IMG/VR virus record: IMGVR_UViG_3300037516_001090
Location: 1-22,964 of that record
Source: a virus
Strand: one strand, 5' to 3'
Length of the DNA stretch: 22,964 nt
Shown here: piece after piece, positions 14,051-22,964 of the stretch
Position numbering within the stretch: position 1 is the first letter of the stretch
Layout of the letters: each line of letters opens with the position of its first letter
Made by a program: the position numbers and the translations under genes
Notes under the pieces: generated by a model
Database searches by the model: none
The model's input: only the letters and a program-made list of their open reading frames with translations
Told to the model about the DNA's origin: nothing

Positions 14051-17000
14051 TTACATGCTAGGTGGACCCATATTCAATACGCCCTTCGCTGAACCCTGAG
14101 ATACCAAACCAATTGTATTTCTGTAAAAATTAGGAGGCGAATGACGAATTTGATTGGCAGAAGTTGAGCCTGGTTCTCCACCACTACTACTTGTAATAGT
14201 AGATGACGGTTGCAAAACACCTAACATTTTTTGGAACAGATCAACTAATTGTTGTAATTGATCTGTTTGTATTGATGTTTCATTTGCGATTTCTCCAAGT
14301 TCAGAAGATGCAATTTCAGTTTTCATAGGAGTTGTTGAGGCTTTTTCTCCAGCAACCATTGTTTCCAAGTTTGTGTTTTGAGTTCCTCCTAAAACCGTAC
14401 TAACAACTGATTCATTTTCCGGACTAGGTCCGAATGCAGTATTTGACATGCTACTAGATAAATCTGGACTAGATCCGAATACAGCATTTGACATATTACT
14501 AGTTAAATCTGGACTAGATCCGAATACAGCATTTTTTGCAATTGACATATTACTAGTTAAATCTGACATGCTGCTAGCTAAATTTCCAAGTGGCGAAGCT
14601 CCAATTAAAGATTTCCCAATTGTTGAAACAGTTGAAGCATCTGATTCTGGACTAGATCCGAATACAGCATTTGACATATTACTAGCCAAATTTCCAAGTG
14701 GTGAATTTCCAATTAAAGATTTCCCACCTTCAATCAAAGATTTAATAGGTCCGGATTCTAAAATTGATGAGAAAGACGGTAAAATGCTACTTGCCAAATC
14801 TCCAAGTGGTGAAGACCCAATTAAAGATTTTCCGCTTTTAACTATGGAAGAAAGAATTCCAGTATCTTCAGGTGGCAAAGCATCAACGGGCGGCAAAGCA
14901 CTGCCAGACAACATTCCAAGTGGCGAAGCACTCATTAAAGATTTGCCAATTGTTGAAGCAGCAAATATAAATGGAGAAAGTGCATTTGATAAAATTGAAG
15001 ATAAAAACCCTGACGGATCAAAAACACCTTCGCTCGGAGCAGAAAATTTTTCAACTTCATTAGATGGAATTACAATTTCATCTTTGTGAAGAACAGCAAG
15101 ACCAGTTTCTGATATTTGTTTGGAACCCTCAGCATATCCAACAATTGATTTTAAATTGCCCCAAGTTGCAGATCCCATTTCTGAAACTCCACCCAATACT
15201 TTTGATCCAGAAAGTTCGGTAACTCCACCTAAAGCTCTTCCAATTCCGCTTGCCGTACCTGATCCAACTTCTTGAACTCTTTTAATGTTTTCTTCTTCTG
15301 ATGAACCAAAGGCTTCTCCAACAGATTCTCCAACAGCTTTTGAAGTTTCTAATCCAGGCAGCATGGACGAAATGTAATCAGAAACGCTTTTGAATACTTC
15401 CATAAATGTATTTTGAACATAATCACCAACATATGAAATTGAATATGCAAACTCGTCATAAACTGTTTGACCCAAACCATATAAATATCCAAATGTATTG
15501 TCGTATAGAAATGGTCCTAAACCTTCTAAATATCCAAATGTATTATCATACAGAAATGGTCCTAATTCTTCTATTGAAGCCGTGAGATCTACTGCGCCTG
15601 AGACGACAGCAGATGCACCTGACGCGACAGAAGACGCAACGGTTTCTACCACTTCTCCACCTCCTCCTAACCACGAAGGAAGGTAAGAAAGAATTCTTCC
15701 AATAGTATTTTGATAAAGCCATGTGCCAAATTGCCCTAAAGCTCCAACAGTATTATCCCAAATCCAAGTTCCTGCTCCTGCTAAAGCTCCGATTGTATTA
15801 TCCCAAACCCAAGAACCTGCTCCTGCTAAAGCACCGATTGTATTATCCCAAATCAAAGTTCCAAGAGATTTAATAGAACTGAATATACTTCCAATAGAAC
15901 TGGATAGACTTCCAAAAGAACTGAATATACTTAAAAAAGAACTGAATAGACTTCCGACAGAACTAAATAGACCTCCAATAGAACTAAATATACTTCCAAT
16001 AAAACTGAATATTCTTCCTATGATCTTAAACGGAAGATAAAGAATGTCAATTATAAATCCTAATCCGGATTTTATCCTTTTAATAAATGAATCGCCAATG
16101 CCTTTGCCGAAGAAATTTAAAATTGTTTTAAATGGATAAAGGATTGCACCGACAATTCCAAATATTACAGATTTTATCATATCAGGAATAGATGAAAAGA
16201 TTCTGCCTATTCCTGATATAACATATCCCAATCCCTTGTATATCATAGCTGGTATCCCAAATATTATGTCTACTATTATGTAAAATATTGAAGAAACTAA
16301 TTTGAAAACAGTTTGAACTATTGAATAACCAACTTTCCAAATTAATTTTGGTATTGATGTCAAAACATCTAGCATAATATTACCAGCACCACTAAAATCA
16401 CCAGTAAGTAATTTTCCAACAGCAGAAAATATTTTTCCAATGTTTTTAATACCAGTTAATATTATTCTAAAAGGAAGCATTATAACATCAAATATAGTTC
16501 CAAAAACACTTGTGATGTTTCCAACTATTGAATCACCAAATCCAGCACTAAAGAAATTTAAAACTGTTTTGAATGGATAAAGGATTGCACCGATAATGCC
16601 TAACATTAAAGAAGACATCATGTCAGGTATAGACAAGAATATACTAGCTATTCCTGATATAAGATATCCCAATCCTTTAAATATCACAGCCGGTATATCA
16701 AATATGATGCTTAGTATTGTGTTAAATATTGAAGAAACCAATTTATAAACATTTTTAACTATTGAATAACCAACTTTCAAAATCAATTTTGGTATTGATG
16801 TTAAAACATCTCCAATGCTTGACGCAGCACCACTAAAATCACCACTAAATAACTTTCCAATAGCTGAAAATATTTTCCCAAAGCTTTGATACGCAGTAAG
16901 TATCAATTTAAAAGGAAGTGTCATGACATCAAAAATAATTCCAAAATAACTTGTGATGCTTCCAACAACAGAATCACCAAATCCAGCACTAAAGAAATTT

Positions 17001-20000
17001 AAAATTGTTTTAAATGGCGAAAGTATTACATCAATAATCCCTGACATTAAAGAGAATATCATATCAGGTATAGACAAGAATATACTAGCTATTCCTTCAG
17101 TAAGATATCCTAATCCTTTGAATATCATAGCCGGTATTGCAAGTATGATTTTTACTATTGTGCTAAATATTGAATAAACCAATTTGAAAACATTTTTAAC
17201 TATTAGATAACCAACTTTTAAAATTACAGCCGGTATGTCTACCAATACTGAAGTAAAAACATCTTTTATGGATTTGAATATTCCCAAAAACGCATCTTTT
17301 ACAAGCTTTCCAGCACCGCTAAAATCACCAGAAATAACTTTAACAATGGCTTGAATTATTTTTCCTACTCCTGATAGAATCGCTCCTAATACTTTTATCA
17401 AATTTGTAAACGGAGTTATTATAAGTCTTAAAAAACCACCTATAATACGCCCACCAATTATAAAACCTTCTAAAAGTCCATTTAGCATTTTCCCAAAAAA
17501 GCCAATGCCGCCAGATCCAGCACCTCCTAAAACTGAAAATATACTAATAATTCCAGCAATTGCATCGTATACGCCTTTTCCAATTTCATAAAAACCTTCA
17601 AATATAGAACTTATTGCTTCTACAACTGGCGCTAAAACCGAAGAAATTACTATGACAATTCCTTCAATTATCTTCATTATTCCTCTTACAACAAATCCAA
17701 TAACAGATCCAATAAATTTAAACACAGTTCCAATGCCTTTTCCAATACTAACAATAAACCAAGCAACACCATCTATTGCCTTGCCAAAAAGTCGAAGTGA
17801 TTTAAATGCTCCGTCAGAACTTTTTTCTGTGCTTCCAAAAATTGATGAAACAGAATTGAAAATATCGCTTATTCCTGTAAAAATAGGCTCAATCGCATTC
17901 CAAATTCCACCTCCAATACCTTTTACGATTTCCCAAATTGCTACAAATATAGATTTTATAATTTCATATACGCCTCTAACCACTTCATATACAATTCCAA
18001 TTACAAAAGAAAATACTTTCATTTTGTTTATAAGAAGCGTCAAAGGTTTGATCCACGTGTCGATGTTAAAAAACATACCCAATAAACCACCAGTCAATCC
18101 ATTTAAACTGCCAATAAGAAATCCAGCAGATTCAGCAGAATATTTTTCACCTTCACTTAAGTCTTTTTGATTTTTCTTGAATATTGTAGCAGCTTGTTTT
18201 CCAGCATCGGCAGCTTTCCATACGCCACCAATACCCGCAGACACAATTGCAGCAGCAATAGCTATAGGTCCAGCAAACCGACTGGCTGTACTGGCAAAAC
18301 TCGTCATAGTGGCTCTTAGACCAGTGAGTGCAGTTGTTGTAGCTGTCGTGGCAGTTGCTGTAGCTGTCGTGGCAGCAGCGGTAGCACCTCCTCCAACAGC
18401 AGCAGTAGTAGCAGCTTGAGCGGCAGGGAATGTCAATCTTCCCATTGCGCCACCAGCAGCCGCAGTAGTAGCCGCAGTAGTAGCCGCACCAGTAGCCGCA
18501 GTAGTAGCCGCAGTAGTAGCCGCCCCAGCAGCAACATTCCCAGCAGCACTAGCACCCATACCAAATAATGATTTTGCTCTATTGGCAATACCTTCAAATG
18601 CGCCTGTTACTCTATTGCTTATGTTGTCTAATACGCCTTTTATTTGTTTCGATTCTTTTCCAAATCCAAGTGTTTTAAGTGTTCTTTGTAGATTCCTTGT
18701 GCCTACAAAAAGAGACGTGCTGGACAATGCCAATCCTGCAATTGCTGTTGCAATAATACCTAATACAATAAGAAATCTTCCTGCAACAGCCATTACTTTT
18801 GTTTGGATGCTTAAAACCGAATTGAATATATCAGCATTTGTCTCTGAAAGTTTTTGTTGAACTTCTGTTGTTGCGTCTACTCCCTTTGCCTCATTTGTTG
18901 TTAACCTGCGTTGACCCTCCATGATTTTATTGGTCATTGCTGAGAATTTTGCTCCACTCTTGAAAGCGTCTTTGAAATCTATTTCCAAAGGGGTTTTTCC
19001 TGCTTCTACTAAACCTTCATTTAATTTTTCAACAGCAGCTTGTGCTTCTTTTTGTGCTTGTTCTGAGGTTTTTCCTCCCTTTGCAAACGCTTCATCCAAG
19101 CTTTTTGAACTACTAAGATTCTTTTCAAGACCAGCTAGAACTTCAGTTGATGCACTTATTTCAAAATTTCTTTTTTGTATTTCTAATGCTTTTCTTTGAT
19201 CTGCTAAGCTCTTATCATCAACCATCTGTGTTTTTATGTTTTCTTCTTGTTGCTTTGCTAATTTTTCAATTTCATTTCCTGCTTCTCTTGCCTTGTCGGC
19301 ACTTGTCATCGAGCCTTTTTTGAATGCTCCTTGTTGTTTTAGAAGCTCTGGGTAGCTCATTCCCAATAGTGCTTGTGTTTGCATATTGAGATTTCTTTTT
19401 TGTATATCGCCTAATTGTTCAAATCCCTCTAGTGTTTTTGGACCTCCAAGTCTACTAGCCAGTGCCATGCTTTGATCTGCCATAGCCTTCATTAACTTGG
19501 CGCCGGTAAGCTGTCCGCTTAAAAACTCACCACCTCTACTTCCAAGTGTCATTAAAATCTTATCAAGAGCCTGTCCGCCTTCCATGATTAGCTTAGATGG
19601 ATCTGACAAACCTTCTAGCATGCCAGATAGATCAACGCCCATCTTTTGACCTTCTGCTGAAACTTCCATGAATGCTTTTGCACTTTGAGTGTTTAGATTT
19701 CCTGCATTGAACAAATTTTTCATAATTTGTTCACTCTGTTGCATCGATTTAGCCAGATTTTCTCCAGATAAACCAGTGGAAAGCTGAACCTCTCTCATTC
19801 CGCGACCCATTTGGGCAATTTCATTCTCACTCATCATTAATTCATGATGCATTTTTGCAAAAGATTCGCCTAAACTACCTGTTTCTAATCCAAGCTGAAC
19901 TTCCGTTGAAAGTTGTGATTTTAATAGTTTTTCTGCTGATTTTTGGTTTTTTATGCCACGACCAAGCATTTTATTGTATTCTTTATATGCTGTTACTTGA

Positions 20001-20884
20001 TCTTCAACTCCAGTTTCTCTAACAACATTGCCAATGTTCATCCATGACATTTGCAAATCTTTAGTGGCGCCAGTTATGCCTTGCGTTTGATATAAAGTTT
20101 TATTTAATTCAACCCTTGTATCGTTTGTTCCTTTTCCAATTCCTTTAAACAATGTCTCATTAACTTTAATCCCGCCTGTAAATGTTTCTCTTAATTTTTC
20201 AAAAGAACTACCAACTTTTGCAATTATATTTTGGATTCTATTTAAAGCTGCTAATTCAGGATCTCGATAGTAGCTGTCAATTGGTTTTGATTTTTTCTTT
20301 TTAGTAGCAGTAGCAGTTGCAGCAGCAGCAGTACCAGTAGCGTTTGCGGCAGCAGCACCAGTGCTTGCATTTGCAGCGGCTCCAGCAGTTGTTGCGGCTG
20401 CATTAGGATGTGTAAGTTTACCCATTGCTCCACCAATTACACTTCCTGTAGACTTGAAGCAATTGCATAAGTTTTCAACTGCTCTCATCACAGCAGAATC
20501 ATGTACTGAAATTGTATTGCTCTTAAAAAACCCGCCAAGATTAAATCCTTTTTCTCTTTTTCTTTCCCCGCGATTTTGTGCAACTCTGCCTGTTCCAGTT
20601 CCTCTTGTTTGCTCTCTTTGATCTTTTATTTCTTTTAAAACATCAAGTGTATTTTGTAATAATTGTTTTTGAGCACCTACTTCATTTGTCCAGTCCGCAA
20701 CATAATTACTAAATGTTTCTTTTAAATCATTAATAGCATTTGATTGTGTTTCATTTTTTTCTCCAACAGGTTTTGCTGGACCAACTTGACCCTGCATCAA
20801 AGTGGATATAAGATCTTTGATCTCCTTTAAGGTCAAGTCTGCCGCTTCAAATTTACGTCCAAGATTGTCTATTGCTACGCCCAT
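14051..20884 (-). CDS. Tape measure protein
   Basis: At 2277 aa this is by far the longest product and sits immediately before the baseplate hub genes, the usual place of the tail tape measure. The N-terminal ~700 residues are helical and charged, with an Ala/Thr linker near 160-195. Hydrophobic segments follow near 700 and 875. From about 960 to 1660 the chain is very rich in Ile, Phe, Val and Gly, including three ~147-residue repeats (from residues 1186, 1348 and 1495). Short-period repeats follow (seven- and fifteen-residue). Near residue 1929 is GLAVLHKDEIVIPS, a motif typical of tape measure C-terminal halves, then Gly/Ser-rich GKSLIG and FGSSP repeats. The protein sets tail length, fills the tube before infection, and its hydrophobic part may enter the host envelope. 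If tail length scales at the usual ~0.15 nm per residue, the tail would be roughly 0.3 micrometre (inference). Confidence 0.95.
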   Translation of the reverse strand: MGVAIDNLGRKFEAADLTLKEIKDLISTLMQGQVGPAKPVGEKNETQSNAINDLKETFSNYVADWTNEVGAQKQLLQNTLDVLKEIKDQREQTRGTGTGRVAQNRGERKREKGFNLGGFFKSNTISVHDSAVMRAVENLCNCFKSTGSVIGGAMGKLTHPNAAATTAGAAANASTGAAAANATGTAAAATATATKKKKSKPIDSYYRDPELAALNRIQNIIAKVGSSFEKLRETFTGGIKVNETLFKGIGKGTNDTRVELNKTLYQTQGITGATKDLQMSWMNIGNVVRETGVEDQVTAYKEYNKMLGRGIKNQKSAEKLLKSQLSTEVQLGLETGSLGESFAKMHHELMMSENEIAQMGRGMREVQLSTGLSGENLAKSMQQSEQIMKNLFNAGNLNTQSAKAFMEVSAEGQKMGVDLSGMLEGLSDPSKLIMEGGQALDKILMTLGSRGGEFLSGQLTGAKLMKAMADQSMALASRLGGPKTLEGFEQLGDIQKRNLNMQTQALLGMSYPELLKQQGAFKKGSMTSADKAREAGNEIEKLAKQQEENIKTQMVDDKSLADQRKALEIQKRNFEISASTEVLAGLEKNLSSSKSLDEAFAKGGKTSEQAQKEAQAAVEKLNEGLVEAGKTPLEIDFKDAFKSGAKFSAMTNKIMEGQRRLTTNEAKGVDATTEVQQKLSETNADIFNSVLSIQTKVMAVAGRFLIVLGIIATAIAGLALSSTSLFVGTRNLQRTLKTLGFGKESKQIKGVLDNISNRVTGAFEGIANRAKSLFGMGASAAGNVAAGAATTAATTAATGAATTAATTAAAGGAMGRLTFPAAQAATTAAVGGGATAAATTATATATTATTTALTGLRATMTSFASTASRFAGPIAIAAAIVSAGIGGVWKAADAGKQAATIFKKNQKDLSEGEKYSAESAGFLIGSLNGLTGGLLGMFFNIDTWIKPLTLLINKMKVFSFVIGIVYEVVRGVYEIIKSIFVAIWEIVKGIGGGIWNAIEPIFTGISDIFNSVSSIFGSTEKSSDGAFKSLRLFGKAIDGVAWFIVSIGKGIGTVFKFIGSVIGFVVRGIMKIIEGIVIVISSVLAPVVEAISSIFEGFYEIGKGVYDAIAGIISIFSVLGGAGSGGIGFFGKMLNGLLEGFIIGGRIIGGFLRLIITPFTNLIKVLGAILSGVGKIIQAIVKVISGDFSGAGKLVKDAFLGIFKSIKDVFTSVLVDIPAVILKVGYLIVKNVFKLVYSIFSTIVKIILAIPAMIFKGLGYLTEGIASIFLSIPDMIFSLMSGIIDVILSPFKTILNFFSAGFGDSVVGSITSYFGIIFDVMTLPFKLILTAYQSFGKIFSAIGKLFSGDFSGAASSIGDVLTSIPKLILKVGYSIVKNVYKLVSSIFNTILSIIFDIPAVIFKGLGYLISGIASIFLSIPDMMSSLMLGIIGAILYPFKTVLNFFSAGFGDSIVGNITSVFGTIFDVIMLPFRIILTGIKNIGKIFSAVGKLLTGDFSGAGNIMLDVLTSIPKLIWKVGYSIVQTVFKLVSSIFYIIVDIIFGIPAMIYKGLGYVISGIGRIFSSIPDMIKSVIFGIVGAILYPFKTILNFFGKGIGDSFIKRIKSGLGFIIDILYLPFKIIGRIFSFIGSIFSSIGGLFSSVGSLFSSFLSIFSSFGSLSSSIGSIFSSIKSLGTLIWDNTIGALAGAGSWVWDNTIGALAGAGTWIWDNTVGALGQFGTWLYQNTIGRILSYLPSWLGGGGEVVETVASSVASGASAVVSGAVDLTASIEELGPFLYDNTFGYLEGLGPFLYDNTFGYLYGLGQTVYDEFAYSISYVGDYVQNTFMEVFKSVSDYISSMLPGLETSKAVGESVGEAFGSSEEENIKRVQEVGSGTASGIGRALGGVTELSGSKVLGGVSEMGSATWGNLKSIVGYAEGSKQISETGLAVLHKDEIVIPSNEVEKFSAPSEGVFDPSGFLSSILSNALSPFIFAASTIGKSLMSASPLGMLSGSALPPVDALPPEDTGILSSIVKSGKSLIGSSPLGDLASSILPSFSSILESGPIKSLIEGGKSLIGNSPLGNLASNMSNAVFGSSPESDASTVSTIGKSLIGASPLGNLASSMSDLTSNMSIAKNAVFGSSPDLTSNMSNAVFGSSPDLSSSMSNTAFGPSPENESVVSTVLGGTQNTNLETMVAGEKASTTPMKTEIASSELGEIANETSIQTDQLQQLVDLFQKMLGVLQPSSTITSSSGGEPGSTSANQIRHSPPNFYRNTIGLVSQGSAKGVLNMGPPSM
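14400..14760 (-). repeat. FGSSP / GKSLIG coding repeats at the tape measure C-terminus
   Basis: A short unit ending in the FGSSP motif recurs around 14421, 14470, 14516 and 14652, with near-identical DNA (GGACTAGATCCGAATACAGC in several copies). It is mixed with a second unit encoding GKSLIG.SPLG.LAS that recurs further to about 14950 and 14830. The units are imperfect and spaced unevenly, suggesting past duplication with drift. Confidence 0.8.
15480..15584 (-). repeat. 45-bp coding repeat, second cluster (YDNTFGYL units)
   Basis: Two close copies of a 45-bp unit begin at 15495 and 15540 (plus-strand reference), each encoding a 15-residue YDNTFGYLxGLGPFL-type unit; a divergent third copy lies at lower coordinates. 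The unit is related in period and motif to the WDNTIGAL units at 15705-15860. Confidence 0.8.
15705..15860 (-). repeat. 45-bp tandem coding repeat (WDNTIGAL units)
   Basis: Copies start at 15705, 15750, 15795 and 15840, exactly 45 bases apart. The three at 15750-15840 share GTATTATCCCA; 15705 is divergent. Each encodes a 15-residue unit with the core W/Y-D/Q-N-T-I/V-G, alternating Gly/Ala-rich helix and aromatic residues. Confidence 0.9.
15876..16022 (-). repeat. Seven tandem 21-bp coding repeats (FSS heptads)
   Basis: Seven uninterrupted 21-bp units start at 15876, 15897, 15918, 15939, 15960, 15981 and 16002, with consensus GAACTGAATATACTTCCAATA on the plus strand. They encode seven-residue units of the form (I/L)FSS(I/F/V)GS. 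A degenerate eighth copy precedes them at about 15855. Confidence 0.92.
16000..17329 (-). repeat. Three ~441-486-bp coding repeats in the tape measure
   Basis: The motif GDFSG is encoded at 17315-17329, 16829-16843 and 16388-16402, giving units of 162, 147 and about 147 residues. Within each unit the order is the same: GDFSGA, a helix, SIP..I.KVGY.IV..V.KLV.SIF, IPA.I.KGLGY, SIPDM, then PFKT.LNFF...GDS and LPF..I. DNA similarity is still visible, for example TTGAATAACCAACTTTC. The first unit has ~15 extra residues. Confidence 0.92.
18310..18540 (-). repeat. Ala/Thr low-complexity coding tract
   Basis: GTAGTAGCC/GCAGTAGTAGCC-type short repeats encode an Ala/Thr/Gly-rich tract of the tape measure (about residues 782-858). 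A similar shorter tract is at 20290-20400 (residues ~160-195). Base use here differs from the AT-rich surroundings because of GCN-type codons. They are probably flexible linkers. Confidence 0.85.
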
Positions 20885-20959: not shown

Positions 20960-21478
20960 TTATACAGAAGAAGGAGGATTTTGACCAAAAGGCATCTCAC
21001 CAGTTGCAGTTGCTTGGGGATTTGCCATACGACGAATTTGCTCCCTGACAGATCTACGAATAGCTTCAATTTCATTTGGATCAAATGATCTAGTAATTCC
21101 CATAGCATTCACAACAAACTCGCAATTAAGCTTTTTGATTGACGCCATTCCGTTTCGTTTATATTGACGAAACGCTGATACTATGTAGTCATTTCCTTTT
21201 ATGTATTGATAATTAAATTGCTGACTTTCACAAATAGATTTTCCGGTACCAGGAAACATTAGCTTTTTAATGACTGGGAAAGTCAAATAGTGCAGATTTA
21301 TACCACGAATGTATTTGTCCCAAATATCAGTAACAAGAACAAGTGGAATTGGATCATGACCAGGTTTATAATACAAATAACTGAAAGTAATTAAACTTCC
21401 TCTACCAACAGTTGGATTAACTTTTATGGAAGAATTTAAATTATCAGGAAGTACGGCATCTTGAAATGGAATTGGCAT
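20960..21478 (-). CDS. Small conserved-type myovirus protein upstream of the tape measure
   Basis: The 172-aa product has an N-terminal PLPDNL-like leader, then GSLITFSYLYYKPGHDPIPLVLVTDIWDKYIRGINLHYL (residues ~27-65). This resembles small proteins of T4-type marine phages with a Y..KP.H...P..D.FPLVL....I.G.NLHYL pattern. The middle has FRQYKRNGMASIKKL and the C-terminus is a charged helix (PNEIEAIRRSVREQIRRM) and a Pro-rich tail. Its exact role in the virion is not known to me. The start has no visible Shine-Dalgarno, and the strong terminator ends only 14 bases before it, so expression must rely on read-through, processing or an unusual initiation. Confidence 0.75.
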   Translation of the reverse strand: MPIPFQDAVLPDNLNSSIKVNPTVGRGSLITFSYLYYKPGHDPIPLVLVTDIWDKYIRGINLHYLTFPVIKKLMFPGTGKSICESQQFNYQYIKGNDYIVSAFRQYKRNGMASIKKLNCEFVVNAMGITRSFDPNEIEAIRRSVREQIRRMANPQATATGEMPFGQNPPSSV

Positions 21479-21529: not shown

Positions 21530-21739
21530 TTATTTTTTCAAAATTACATAGAGAGCATGAATGATACCAGGAATAAATCCTAATATTGTTAAAATGCAAT
21601 TAATGAAAAAGCTGCATCTTAGACCGTCTTTAATTAAAACTCCAAGGGGTGGCAGAAAAAATGCCAAAATCAGAGCTATCAAACTTACTTCGTCCACTTC
21701 AACATCTGTGATGTCTTGTTTGTCTACTTGATTCTCCAT
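21530..21739 (-). CDS. YqaE/Pmp3-family small membrane protein
   Basis: The 69-aa product has an acidic N-terminal tail (residues 1-18) and then the full Pmp3/YqaE (UPF0057) signature: LIALILAFFLPPLGVLI (TM1, ~20-36), the short loop KDGLRCSFFIN, and ILTILGFIPGIIHALYVI (TM2, ~49-66). Bacterial and eukaryotic members are induced by stress and affect membrane potential or ion balance; in bacteria the exact activity is unclear. It has an excellent GGAGG site four bases before the ATG and is the last gene before the terminator, following the ADP-ribosyltransferase-like gene by 38 bp. A host-derived gene acquired by the phage, acting in the host inner membrane, is the natural reading; a role in lysis timing or superinfection is speculation. 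Confidence 0.95.
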   Translation of the reverse strand: MENQVDKQDITDVEVDEVSLIALILAFFLPPLGVLIKDGLRCSFFINCILTILGFIPGIIHALYVILKK

Positions 21740-21777: not shown

Positions 21778-22638
21778 TTAAATAATTTTCTTTAAAACGT
21801 ATCTTATGTTCGGAGTAAATCTTGCTCCTTCTCTTTTTGGACCTGATAATTCAAAATAACCATTTTTATTATAATCGTATTGAAAAATTAAAGTTAACGT
21901 TCCAAAACTAGCTCTTGTTGCAACAACCATCCAAGCCTCTAATATTTCTTTAGCAGACAATGGTCCAACATGTGCATATTCTGAAGGAGGTATTGCTTCT
22001 GGCATATCTTCATGGCTCTTTACGTTGTTTTTTGAAATGGCTATAACTACCGATGGCTTATTTCTTGATGTTTCAAATTGCCAAGGCGAAAAACCACTTG
22101 CATATGAGGAAGCAGTGGAAGCTTTTCCATAAAACGTCAAACCTTTTTGATCATCGCCAATATTATAAGACCCTTTGCTTTGAATAAATCCTGTTTTTTT
22201 AATGTTTTCCCATTCTTCAAATGACATGCCTCTGTATACCAAATTTGGATTATCTGGTATTTCTTTAATTGCATCTTCAGGATTCTTTTTTAAATAATAT
22301 CCTGTTTTCCCGCCCTTATATTTCTTGTAATAATCATATAAATCATTATCCGGAGAAACAAGTTCAGGTTCTCGAAATTTTTTAGGTTTAAGTAAAATTG
22401 TAAAAAAAACTTCACTGTTTCCTTCAAATATCTCAGAAAGCTCTATTTCATAACGACTTGAAAGAGCTTCAAATTCATCGCCATAATATTTTTGAATTGA
22501 ATTTTTCAAAAAAGATTTTAGTTTTTTTTCATCGGCATATTCTAAAGCATTTCCTTTTTGATTTACTTTTAAAGCAAATCCTTTTATGCTTGGTGAAATT
22601 GATATTGCTTCTTCTATAATCCAATTTTTAAATTTCAT
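21778..22638 (-). CDS. Probable ADP-ribosyltransferase with capsid-targeting-like N-terminus
   Basis: The 286-aa product contains an R-S-E-type ADP-ribosyltransferase pattern in its C-terminal half: NLVYRGMSFEEW (residues ~132-143, with Arg136 as the candidate NAD-binding Arg), a strand and loop to KGLTFYGKASTASSYASGF (165-183, with the ST.S core), and acidic residues around PPSEY (217-221) in the place of the catalytic Glu. No E.E pair is obvious, so the active-site Glu is uncertain. The N-terminus, MKFKNWIIEEA, resembles the T4 capsid-targeting peptide MKTYQEFIAE|A and fits the gp21 rule (I/L)XE|A, with cleavage predicted after Glu10. This suggests packaging in the head and injection with the DNA, as for T4 Alt. 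It starts one base after the previous stop and shares the transcript with the Pmp3 gene. Confidence 0.7.
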   Translation of the reverse strand: MKFKNWIIEEAISISPSIKGFALKVNQKGNALEYADEKKLKSFLKNSIQKYYGDEFEALSSRYEIELSEIFEGNSEVFFTILLKPKKFREPELVSPDNDLYDYYKKYKGGKTGYYLKKNPEDAIKEIPDNPNLVYRGMSFEEWENIKKTGFIQSKGSYNIGDDQKGLTFYGKASTASSYASGFSPWQFETSRNKPSVVIAISKNNVKSHEDMPEAIPPSEYAHVGPLSAKEILEAWMVVATRASFGTLTLIFQYDYNKNGYFELSGPKREGARFTPNIRYVLKKII

Positions 22639-22639
22639 T

Positions 22640-22964
22640 TTAAACCCTATTTAAAACAGTCGTACTGTAATCAGTTCCACCAGTTTTAATGATTAATCCA
22701 GTGCCATCTTGACCACTATCTCGAATTTCTTCTTCTGCTTTAGAACTTCTTGAAAAGAATTTTTTAACTTCATCAATAATGCTTTCGACAACACGTTTTC
22801 CGGCATCTTCTTCTTTAATGTTTTCTGACATATAATCATTAAACATATCTTCAACATCTAGCCAATAAGATTTACCAAAAGGTTGTGTTTTTTCTTCTTT
22901 CTGAATGCGATATGCAACCATATCACCAATTTCATAAATTCTAATTCCATCAAAGCTAAGTTTG
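22640..22964 (-). CDS. Unrecognised protein, partial (5' end outside window)
   Basis: The frame is open to the window edge. An ATG at 22921 exists, but the 14 codons upstream (KLSFDGIRIYEIGD) read like coding sequence and there is no convincing ribosome site at the ATG, so the gene probably begins outside. The visible 107 residues include a basic/aromatic part (YRIQKEEKTQPFGKSYWLDVEDMFNDYM), a helical charged middle, and a short Gly/Thr-rich C-terminus (DGTGLIIKTGG). I do not recognise the family. It ends one base before the ADP-ribosyltransferase-like start, so the two are translationally coupled and may be functionally linked. Confidence 0.7.
   Translation of the reverse strand, partial: KLSFDGIRIYEIGDMVAYRIQKEEKTQPFGKSYWLDVEDMFNDYMSENIKEEDAGKRVVESIIDEVKKFFSRSSKAEEEIRDSGQDGTGLIIKTGGTDYSTTVLNRV

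What the first reader, a model, noticed from the sequence alone, without database searches (positions are those of the whole stretch)
21778..22638. ADP-ribosyltransferase with a T4-like capsid-targeting peptide
The first eleven residues match the T4 internal-protein targeting peptide in length, N-terminal MK, aromatic and aliphatic positions, and a Glu10|Ala11 cleavage site obeying the gp21 rule. The rest has a VYRGMS/STxS ADP-ribosyltransferase pattern. Together they suggest an effector stored in the phage head and injected at infection, analogous to T4 Alt but with no evident sequence relation. Alt-like effectors outside close T4 relatives are poorly known.
Basis: partly seen in the sequence, partly recalled or inferred. 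Interest (0 to 1): 0.7.

Follow-up and report, generated by a model that had tools for sequence, protein, structure and literature searches.

The report
Head-tagged ADP-ribosyltransferase of a huge phage
A gene on a fragment of a probably huge, T4-related bacterial virus encodes an ADP-ribosyltransferase-fold enzyme that begins with a short 'load me into the virus head' tag, and the same tag turns out to sit on dozens of unrelated proteins in sister viruses, so these phages probably carry a stock of ready-made proteins into the cell with their DNA.

Summary
The ORF is real (21778-22638, minus strand, 286 aa). Its core (about residues 130-235) is an ADP-ribosyltransferase fold: homologs lie inside large proteins of unrelated phages, R136 and E220 are invariant, and nearly all good PDB fold matches are ARTs. 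No Pfam, PHROG or NCBIfam family matches. The N-terminal peptide MKFKNWIIEEA is a variant of a tag at the start of many unrelated genes in sister phages (contigs up to 533 kb): 24 starts against 0.2 expected. The sister consensus MKxFxxW(L/I)xE has exactly T4's spacing (IPII/IPIII MKTYQEFIAE). A T4-type (S77) prohead protease is found on six sister contigs, and an [L/I]xE cleavage motif is concentrated just after the tag (51/92 against 1-8/92 further on). Other tagged proteins match SAM lyase, Nudix, 2H phosphoesterase, poly(A)-polymerase and kinase families. Best reading: an Alt-like effector packed into the prohead, trimmed by a gp21-type protease and injected. Corrections: the aromatics sit one residue earlier than in T4, cleavage after E9 is as likely as after E10, and 'STxS' is out of register. 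Packaging, injection and catalysis are inferred, not shown. New variant of a known kind; the tag-wide arsenal is the interesting part.

The parts
21778..22638 (-). Whole gene: 286-aa tagged ADP-ribosyltransferase-fold protein
   Evidence: ORF list; start 1 nt after the stop of the upstream ORF
22609..22638 (-). N-terminal targeting peptide, residues 1-10 (MKFKNWIIEE); predicted cleavage after E9 or E10
   Evidence: Same peptide type at starts of unrelated genes in sister phages; [LI]xE enrichment; T4 CTS
22354..22605 (-). Intermediate region, residues 12-95, no homolog found; low-to-moderate-confidence beta-helix-beta prediction
21934..22251 (-). ART core, residues 130-235
   Evidence: Homologs; structure model; PDB fold matches
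22231..22233 (-). Arg136, invariant predicted catalytic Arg of motif I (V-Y-R-G-M-S)
   Evidence: alignment A4
21979..21981 (-). Glu220, invariant predicted catalytic Glu of motif III
   Evidence: alignment A4
22640..22964 (-). C-terminal part of a conserved upstream gene (158-aa family, MKQFxEFVDRKQRE...), cut by the window edge
   Evidence: 60-80% identity in most sister phages and down to 35% in distant ones; full-length in L145:7801-8277
21530..21739 (-). Downstream neighbour: Pmp3-family small membrane protein
   Evidence: Pfam PF01679 E 1e-19
20960..21478 (-). Downstream neighbour: T4 gp2-like DNA end protector
   Evidence: phrog_429 E 1e-6; conserved in sister phages

Best explanation
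The gene encodes a capsid-targeted effector. The first nine or ten residues are a T4-type capsid-targeting sequence that binds the prohead core during late assembly. The phage's gp21-type (S77) prohead protease then cuts after E9 or E10 and frees the protein in the head. On infection it goes through the tail with the DNA and acts in the host at once as an ADP-ribosyltransferase (R136/E220). Target unknown; a host macromolecule of the takeover or defence machinery is most likely. Shown by computation: ORF, fold, family, tag sharing, protease in sister phages, cleavage-motif enrichment. Inferred: packaging, cleavage, injection, catalysis, target.
For: Tag: starts with M[KNR]x(0-2)FxxW[LIV] number 24 against 0.20 expected; exact [KN]FKxW[IL] is 8 at starts against 0 internal. 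Tagged proteins are unrelated in the rest of their sequence: Pfam hits to S-AdoMet lyase, PolyA_pol, AAA_33, NIF phosphatase, NUDIX, tRNA_lig_CPD/2H, DUF4379, ankyrin. T4 IPII/IPIII MKTYQEFIAE and the sister consensus MKxFxxWLxE share spacing; T4 residues 4 and 7 direct targeting, 8 and 10 processing, gp21 cuts after L/I-x-E (PMC9026906). [LI]xE lies 3-6 residues after the Trp in 51/92 against 1-8/92 in later windows; where L/I is at W+3, E follows at W+5 in 26/28 against 19/64 otherwise, p = 1e-8. S77 protease in 6 sister records, beside a T4-type major head protein and tag-like genes in G014. ART: core homologs with invariant R136 and E220; core model with block pLDDT up to 96 and PDB matches nearly all ART. 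The gene sits in a late structural region between a conserved gene and gp2; T4 has ipI about 2 kb from gene 2.
Against: No virion proteomics. This phage's own protease and other tagged proteins are outside the 22,964-base fragment. No relative of the whole protein was found, and none in 49 sister records, so the tag on this particular ART cannot be tested by conservation. Motif II Ser is Gly and the first Glu of E-x-E is Pro, so activity could be altered or lost. Foldseek E-values for the core model are modest (best 2e-3). P1' residues are not restricted. The tag regex was written after seeing the sister phages, and part of the 92-protein catalogue was collected with an MNFKEW pattern.
Confidence: 0.74

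Rival explanations
1. The peptide is an N-terminal sorting signal for another destination (for example a replication compartment, the membrane or the tail), not the head core.
For: No direct packaging data; the targeting partner in these phages is unknown. Several tagged genes lie far from head genes.
Against: Same spacing as the tested T4 capsid-targeting sequence; [LI]xE cleavage motif concentrated just after it; S77 protease in the clade; tag-like starts also on genes flanking the protease-head protein module of G014.
Confidence: 0.14
2. The peptide on this ART is a chance resemblance and the protein is an ordinary late or early enzyme made in the infected cell.
For: Single case without homologs; F3/W6 are offset by one from T4's Y4/F7.
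Against: The peptide nearly repeats unrelated sister genes (MKFKNWLLKEE, MNFKEWIIKEE, MKFKNWLRLDE); 0 internal occurrences in 457,041 residues.
Confidence: 0.05
3. The protein is packaged, but its ART fold works as a NAD-consuming or NAD-ADPr counter-defence enzyme rather than as a transferase to a host macromolecule, or is catalytically degenerate.
For: P218 replaces the first Glu of E-x-E seen in several relatives, and Gly replaces the motif II Ser; head-packaged NAD-ADPr enzymes with both roles are described (PMC9503650).
Against: R136 and E220 are retained; the closest homolog L330 shares the Gly variant, so the variant is not private to this protein.
Confidence: 0.25

Closest known systems
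T4 internal proteins IPI/IPII/IPIII with the capsid-targeting sequence (CTS)
   Same: Ten-residue N-terminal peptide, two aromatics three residues apart, then aliphatic-x-Glu; gp21-type protease in the phage group; location near gene 2
   Different: Aromatics one residue nearer the start; Trp at the second aromatic; cargo is a 286-aa enzyme, and the sister phages tag many enzymes instead of three small basic proteins
T4 Alt
   Same: ADP-ribosyltransferase, expected in the head and injected
   Different: No profile match and no sequence relation found; T4 Alt has a 7-residue propeptide (PMC9026906); separate core family
ART domains of polyvalent / large phage proteins (Planktothrix phage Pag-Yong1 protein; L181-L190, L313-L330)
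   Same: Homologous ART core, 23-41% identity in alignment A4
   Different: There embedded in proteins up to 2,772 aa; here a small tagged protein, i.e. delivery by a peptide tag instead of by fusion. The weak Pfam ART-PolyVal hit in Pag-Yong1 lies in another part of that protein
TreX / TreTu Rhs ADP-ribosyltransferase toxins (PDB 9gco, 8s2m, 8s2n, 7zhl)
   Same: Best fold matches of the core model
   Different: 15-18% identity; other delivery; no implication of the same target

Membership tests
T4-type capsid-targeting sequence | Two aromatic residues three apart near the N-terminus (T4 Y4, F7) | tested here: met
   F3 and W6, spacing 3, one residue nearer the start; sister consensus F4/W7
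T4-type capsid-targeting sequence | L/I-x-E protease site directly after the aromatics | tested here: met
   I7-I8-E9 and I8-E9-E10; enrichment across the tag family
T4-type capsid-targeting sequence | Phage has a gp21-type prohead protease | tested here: inconclusive
   Present in 6 sister records; this phage's own genome is incomplete, so not seen in it
T4-type capsid-targeting sequence | Peptide shared by otherwise unrelated proteins of the same phage | tested here: inconclusive
   Met in sister phages (12 tagged starts in G014 alone, 4 in G020); not testable within the window fragment
T4-type capsid-targeting sequence | Protein found in the mature head with the peptide removed | not testable with these tools
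   needs virion mass spectrometry
ADP-ribosyltransferase superfamily | ART fold | tested here: met
   Core model pLDDT up to 96 by block; PDB matches TreX, TreTu, KptA/Tpt1, pertussis S1, DarT, modest E-values
ADP-ribosyltransferase superfamily | Conserved catalytic Arg and Glu | tested here: met
   R136 and E220 invariant in 16 sequences; catalytic role assigned by analogy
ADP-ribosyltransferase superfamily | Motif II Ser (S-T-S), a feature of the R-S-E class | tested here: not met
   Gly171 at the family Ser position
T4 Alt family / Pfam ART families / ART-PolyVal PF18760 | Profile match at the curated cut-off | tested here: not met
   No Pfam family at E<=10, none for the core
ADP-ribosyltransferase superfamily | NAD-dependent activity | not testable with these tools
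   needs a biochemical assay

The most novel reading that the evidence does not exclude
A clade of T4-related phages, including huge ones, uses one short head-targeting peptide as a universal loading tag, often with its own late promoter almost at the start codon, so that any captured enzyme can become an injected effector. Individual genomes carry a dozen or more such cargo proteins (ARTs, SAM lyases, Nudix, 2H, nucleotidyltransferases, kinases), sometimes in tandem arrays. The window ART is one of them.
Probability: 0.65. Interest if true: 0.85.

Novelty: new variant of a known kind. Interest (0 to 1): 0.67.

Why it matters
T4 showed decades ago that a ten-residue peptide is enough to load a protein into a phage head, and reviews suggest this may be a general way for T4-like phages to vary their internal proteins. 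Evidence beyond close T4 relatives is thin. Here the same peptide logic appears in uncultured huge phages on many unrelated enzymes. If true, it gives a direct sequence rule for predicting which proteins such phages inject at time zero, including likely counter-defence enzymes such as SAM lyase, Nudix and 2H proteins, and it offers new loading tags to compare with T4's.

Tried and rejected
Direct search for relatives of the whole protein in viral contigs, plasmids, genome contigs and 49 sister records: none. Filing under Pfam ART-PolyVal: rejected, no match, and the weak ART-PolyVal hit in Pag-Yong1 (aa 1372-1460) is not the region homologous to the query (about aa 1160-1305). The TAAATA just upstream of this gene as its own late promoter: rejected, because it lies in the last codons of the upstream gene (Leu-Asn-Arg), sits 9 nt from the ATG instead of 4-6, and is also present in L145, where another gene follows. 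phiKZ and T4 first 50 kb as negative controls: no motif hits, but too little sequence to weigh. First full-length model: low confidence (pLDDT 64) and no clear PDB match, replaced by a core model. The four YHRT...GLYTTY tagged proteins as ARTs: pattern only, no profile support. Homology of residues 1-110 to other tagged proteins: none.

Full report
What was checked. The window is a complete 22,964-base IMG/VR record, a fragment of a T4-related myovirus. It carries gp53-like, gp25-like and gp6-like baseplate genes and a gp2-like DNA end protector. Relatives of its gp6-like protein lie on contigs of up to 533 kb, with a 45.7% match in a 595-kb uncultured phage genome, so it is probably a huge phage. 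The ORF of the finding is real: 286 codons, 21778-22638, minus strand, starting one base after the stop of the upstream ORF.

The enzyme. Whole-protein searches found no Pfam, PHROG or convincing NCBIfam match and no close relative. The core is clearly homologous to domains inside large proteins of other phages: the 2,772-aa 'large polyvalent protein' of Planktothrix phage Pag-Yong1 (28.8%, E 4e-9) and the loci of two viral-contig scans (10 and 23 loci, partly the same contigs). In a 16-sequence alignment R136-G-M-S, E142, S154, G156, N159, Q164, G-L-T168, A176, Y179 and E220 are invariant. An AlphaFold2 model of residues 101-286 reaches block pLDDT 84-96 over most of the core. Its PDB matches are nearly all ADP-ribosyltransferases: TreX and TreTu Rhs toxins (best E 2e-3, probability 1.0), EcPltA, KptA/Tpt1, pertussis S1, DarT, pierisin. 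E-values are modest, but the agreement across the list is the point. The family often has E-x-E at motif III; the query has P218-S-E220.

The tag. In T4 the IPII and IPIII N-termini read MKTYQEFIAE|A. Mutation work showed that residues 4 and 7 direct targeting, 8 and 10 processing, and that gp21 cuts after L/I-x-E (PMC9026906). I took the DNA of sister phages found by the gp6-like and gp2-like proteins and looked at gene starts. M[KNR]x(0-2)FxxW[LIV] occurs at 24 of 2,166 starts against 0.20 expected from its frequency inside the same proteins; a narrower form with a following Glu is 17 against 0.02. [KN]FKxW[IL], which fits the query, is 8 at starts and 0 in 457,041 internal residues. The nearest peptides are MKFKNWLLKEE, MNFKEWIIKEE and MKFKNWLRLDE on unrelated proteins. 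The longer form MKxFxxWLxE has T4's exact spacing; MNF/MKF is one residue shorter.

The protease link. The T4-type prohead protease (Peptidase_S77, PF03420) is above cut-off on six of the 20 sister records searched. In G014 it sits immediately before a scaffold-like gene and a T4-type major head protein (phrog_138, E 4e-84), with further tag-like starts around the module. Across 92 tagged proteins, [LI]xE with the Glu 3-6 residues after the Trp is present in 51, against 1-8 in each later four-residue window. At the commonest position Glu follows in 26 of 28 proteins that have L/I two residues before, against 19 of 64 that do not (Fisher p = 1e-8). This correlation is what a gp21-type cleavage site would leave. 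In the query both E9 and E10 qualify.

The cargo. Tagged proteins differ after the peptide. Pfam matches among them: S-adenosylmethionine lyase (two), poly(A) polymerase head domain, AAA_33 P-loop kinase (two), NIF/HAD phosphatase, NUDIX (two), 2H/tRNA-ligase phosphodiesterase (one above cut-off, one weak), DUF4379 and ankyrin repeats. L268 holds a run of six consecutive tagged genes. L156 holds a second ART-looking tagged protein (LYHGAT...GGGFFV), and four more share a YHRT...GLYTTY pattern; these are pattern-level only. Iyer et al. (PMC9503650) already argued that phage ARTs are often packaged, by fusion to head proteins or by gene neighbourhood. A search for papers since 2015 that mention a capsid targeting sequence gave 14, none with a title or abstract about such tags in huge phages; I did not read all of them and the library is partial, so this does not prove novelty.

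Late expression. TA[ACT]ATA lies within 22 nt before 55 of 92 tagged genes against 125 of 1,669 others (p = 3e-34); within one genome, G014, 10 of 12 against 34 of 284. TAAATA boxes peak 4-6 nt before the ATG, which with T4-like promoter geometry would put the transcript start at or next to the AUG. gp2-like genes of some sister phages have the box too. The query's own TAAATA does not count; its late expression is inferred from its place directly after a conserved gene and before gp2.

Neighbourhood. The ART occupies a variable slot between the conserved 158-aa gene and Pmp3-gp2. G001 has a 260-aa unrelated gene there; several other sister phages have nothing. This fits an exchangeable accessory gene.

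Limits. No virion data; the window is a fragment; the tag regex was formed after looking at sister genomes; part of the tag catalogue was collected with the MNFKEW pattern, so its counts are not a survey. The enrichment at starts was measured on the eight sister records, which were fetched for other reasons, and residues after the tag were not used for selection. The 'other genes' set in the promoter test comes from those eight records only, whereas the tagged set includes further contigs.

Noticed in passing
L268:100-8099: Six consecutive genes each starting MNFK[SEHQ]W(L/I)..., nearly all with TAAATAAACT or a similar box just before the ATG: a tandem array of tagged proteins (treble-clef DUF4379, ankyrin, unknown).
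   Followed up: partly
sister phages G005, G014, G020, G010: TAAATA-type late-promoter boxes peak 4-6 nt upstream of the ATG, predicting leaderless late transcripts in this clade.
   Followed up: partly
L171:6179-7531 (+) and L178:13073-13738 (+): S-adenosylmethionine lyase domains behind a head-tag-like N-terminus: possible injected anti-restriction enzymes.
   Followed up: partly
L156:3-779 (-): Second tagged ART-looking protein (MNISFREWLFAEE...LLYHGAT...GGGFFV) in a sister phage, unrelated in sequence to the window ART.
   Followed up: partly
L247:3388-4863, L217:47-1552, L237:2982-4568, L291:9414-10817: Tagged family with YHRT...GxGLYTT pattern at the N-terminus resembling an H-Y type ART/PARP site, with repeats behind it in some members; no profile match.
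   Followed up: partly
window 21530-21739: Pmp3-family membrane protein conserved beside the gp2-like gene in most sister phages.
   Followed up: no
L145:7006-7788 (-): The slot that holds the ART in the window holds an unrelated 260-aa protein (glycosyltransferase-like by eye) in the relative G001.
   Followed up: no
window 14051-20884: 2,277-aa tape-measure-like protein with repeated hydrophobic segments, no profile match.
   Followed up: no
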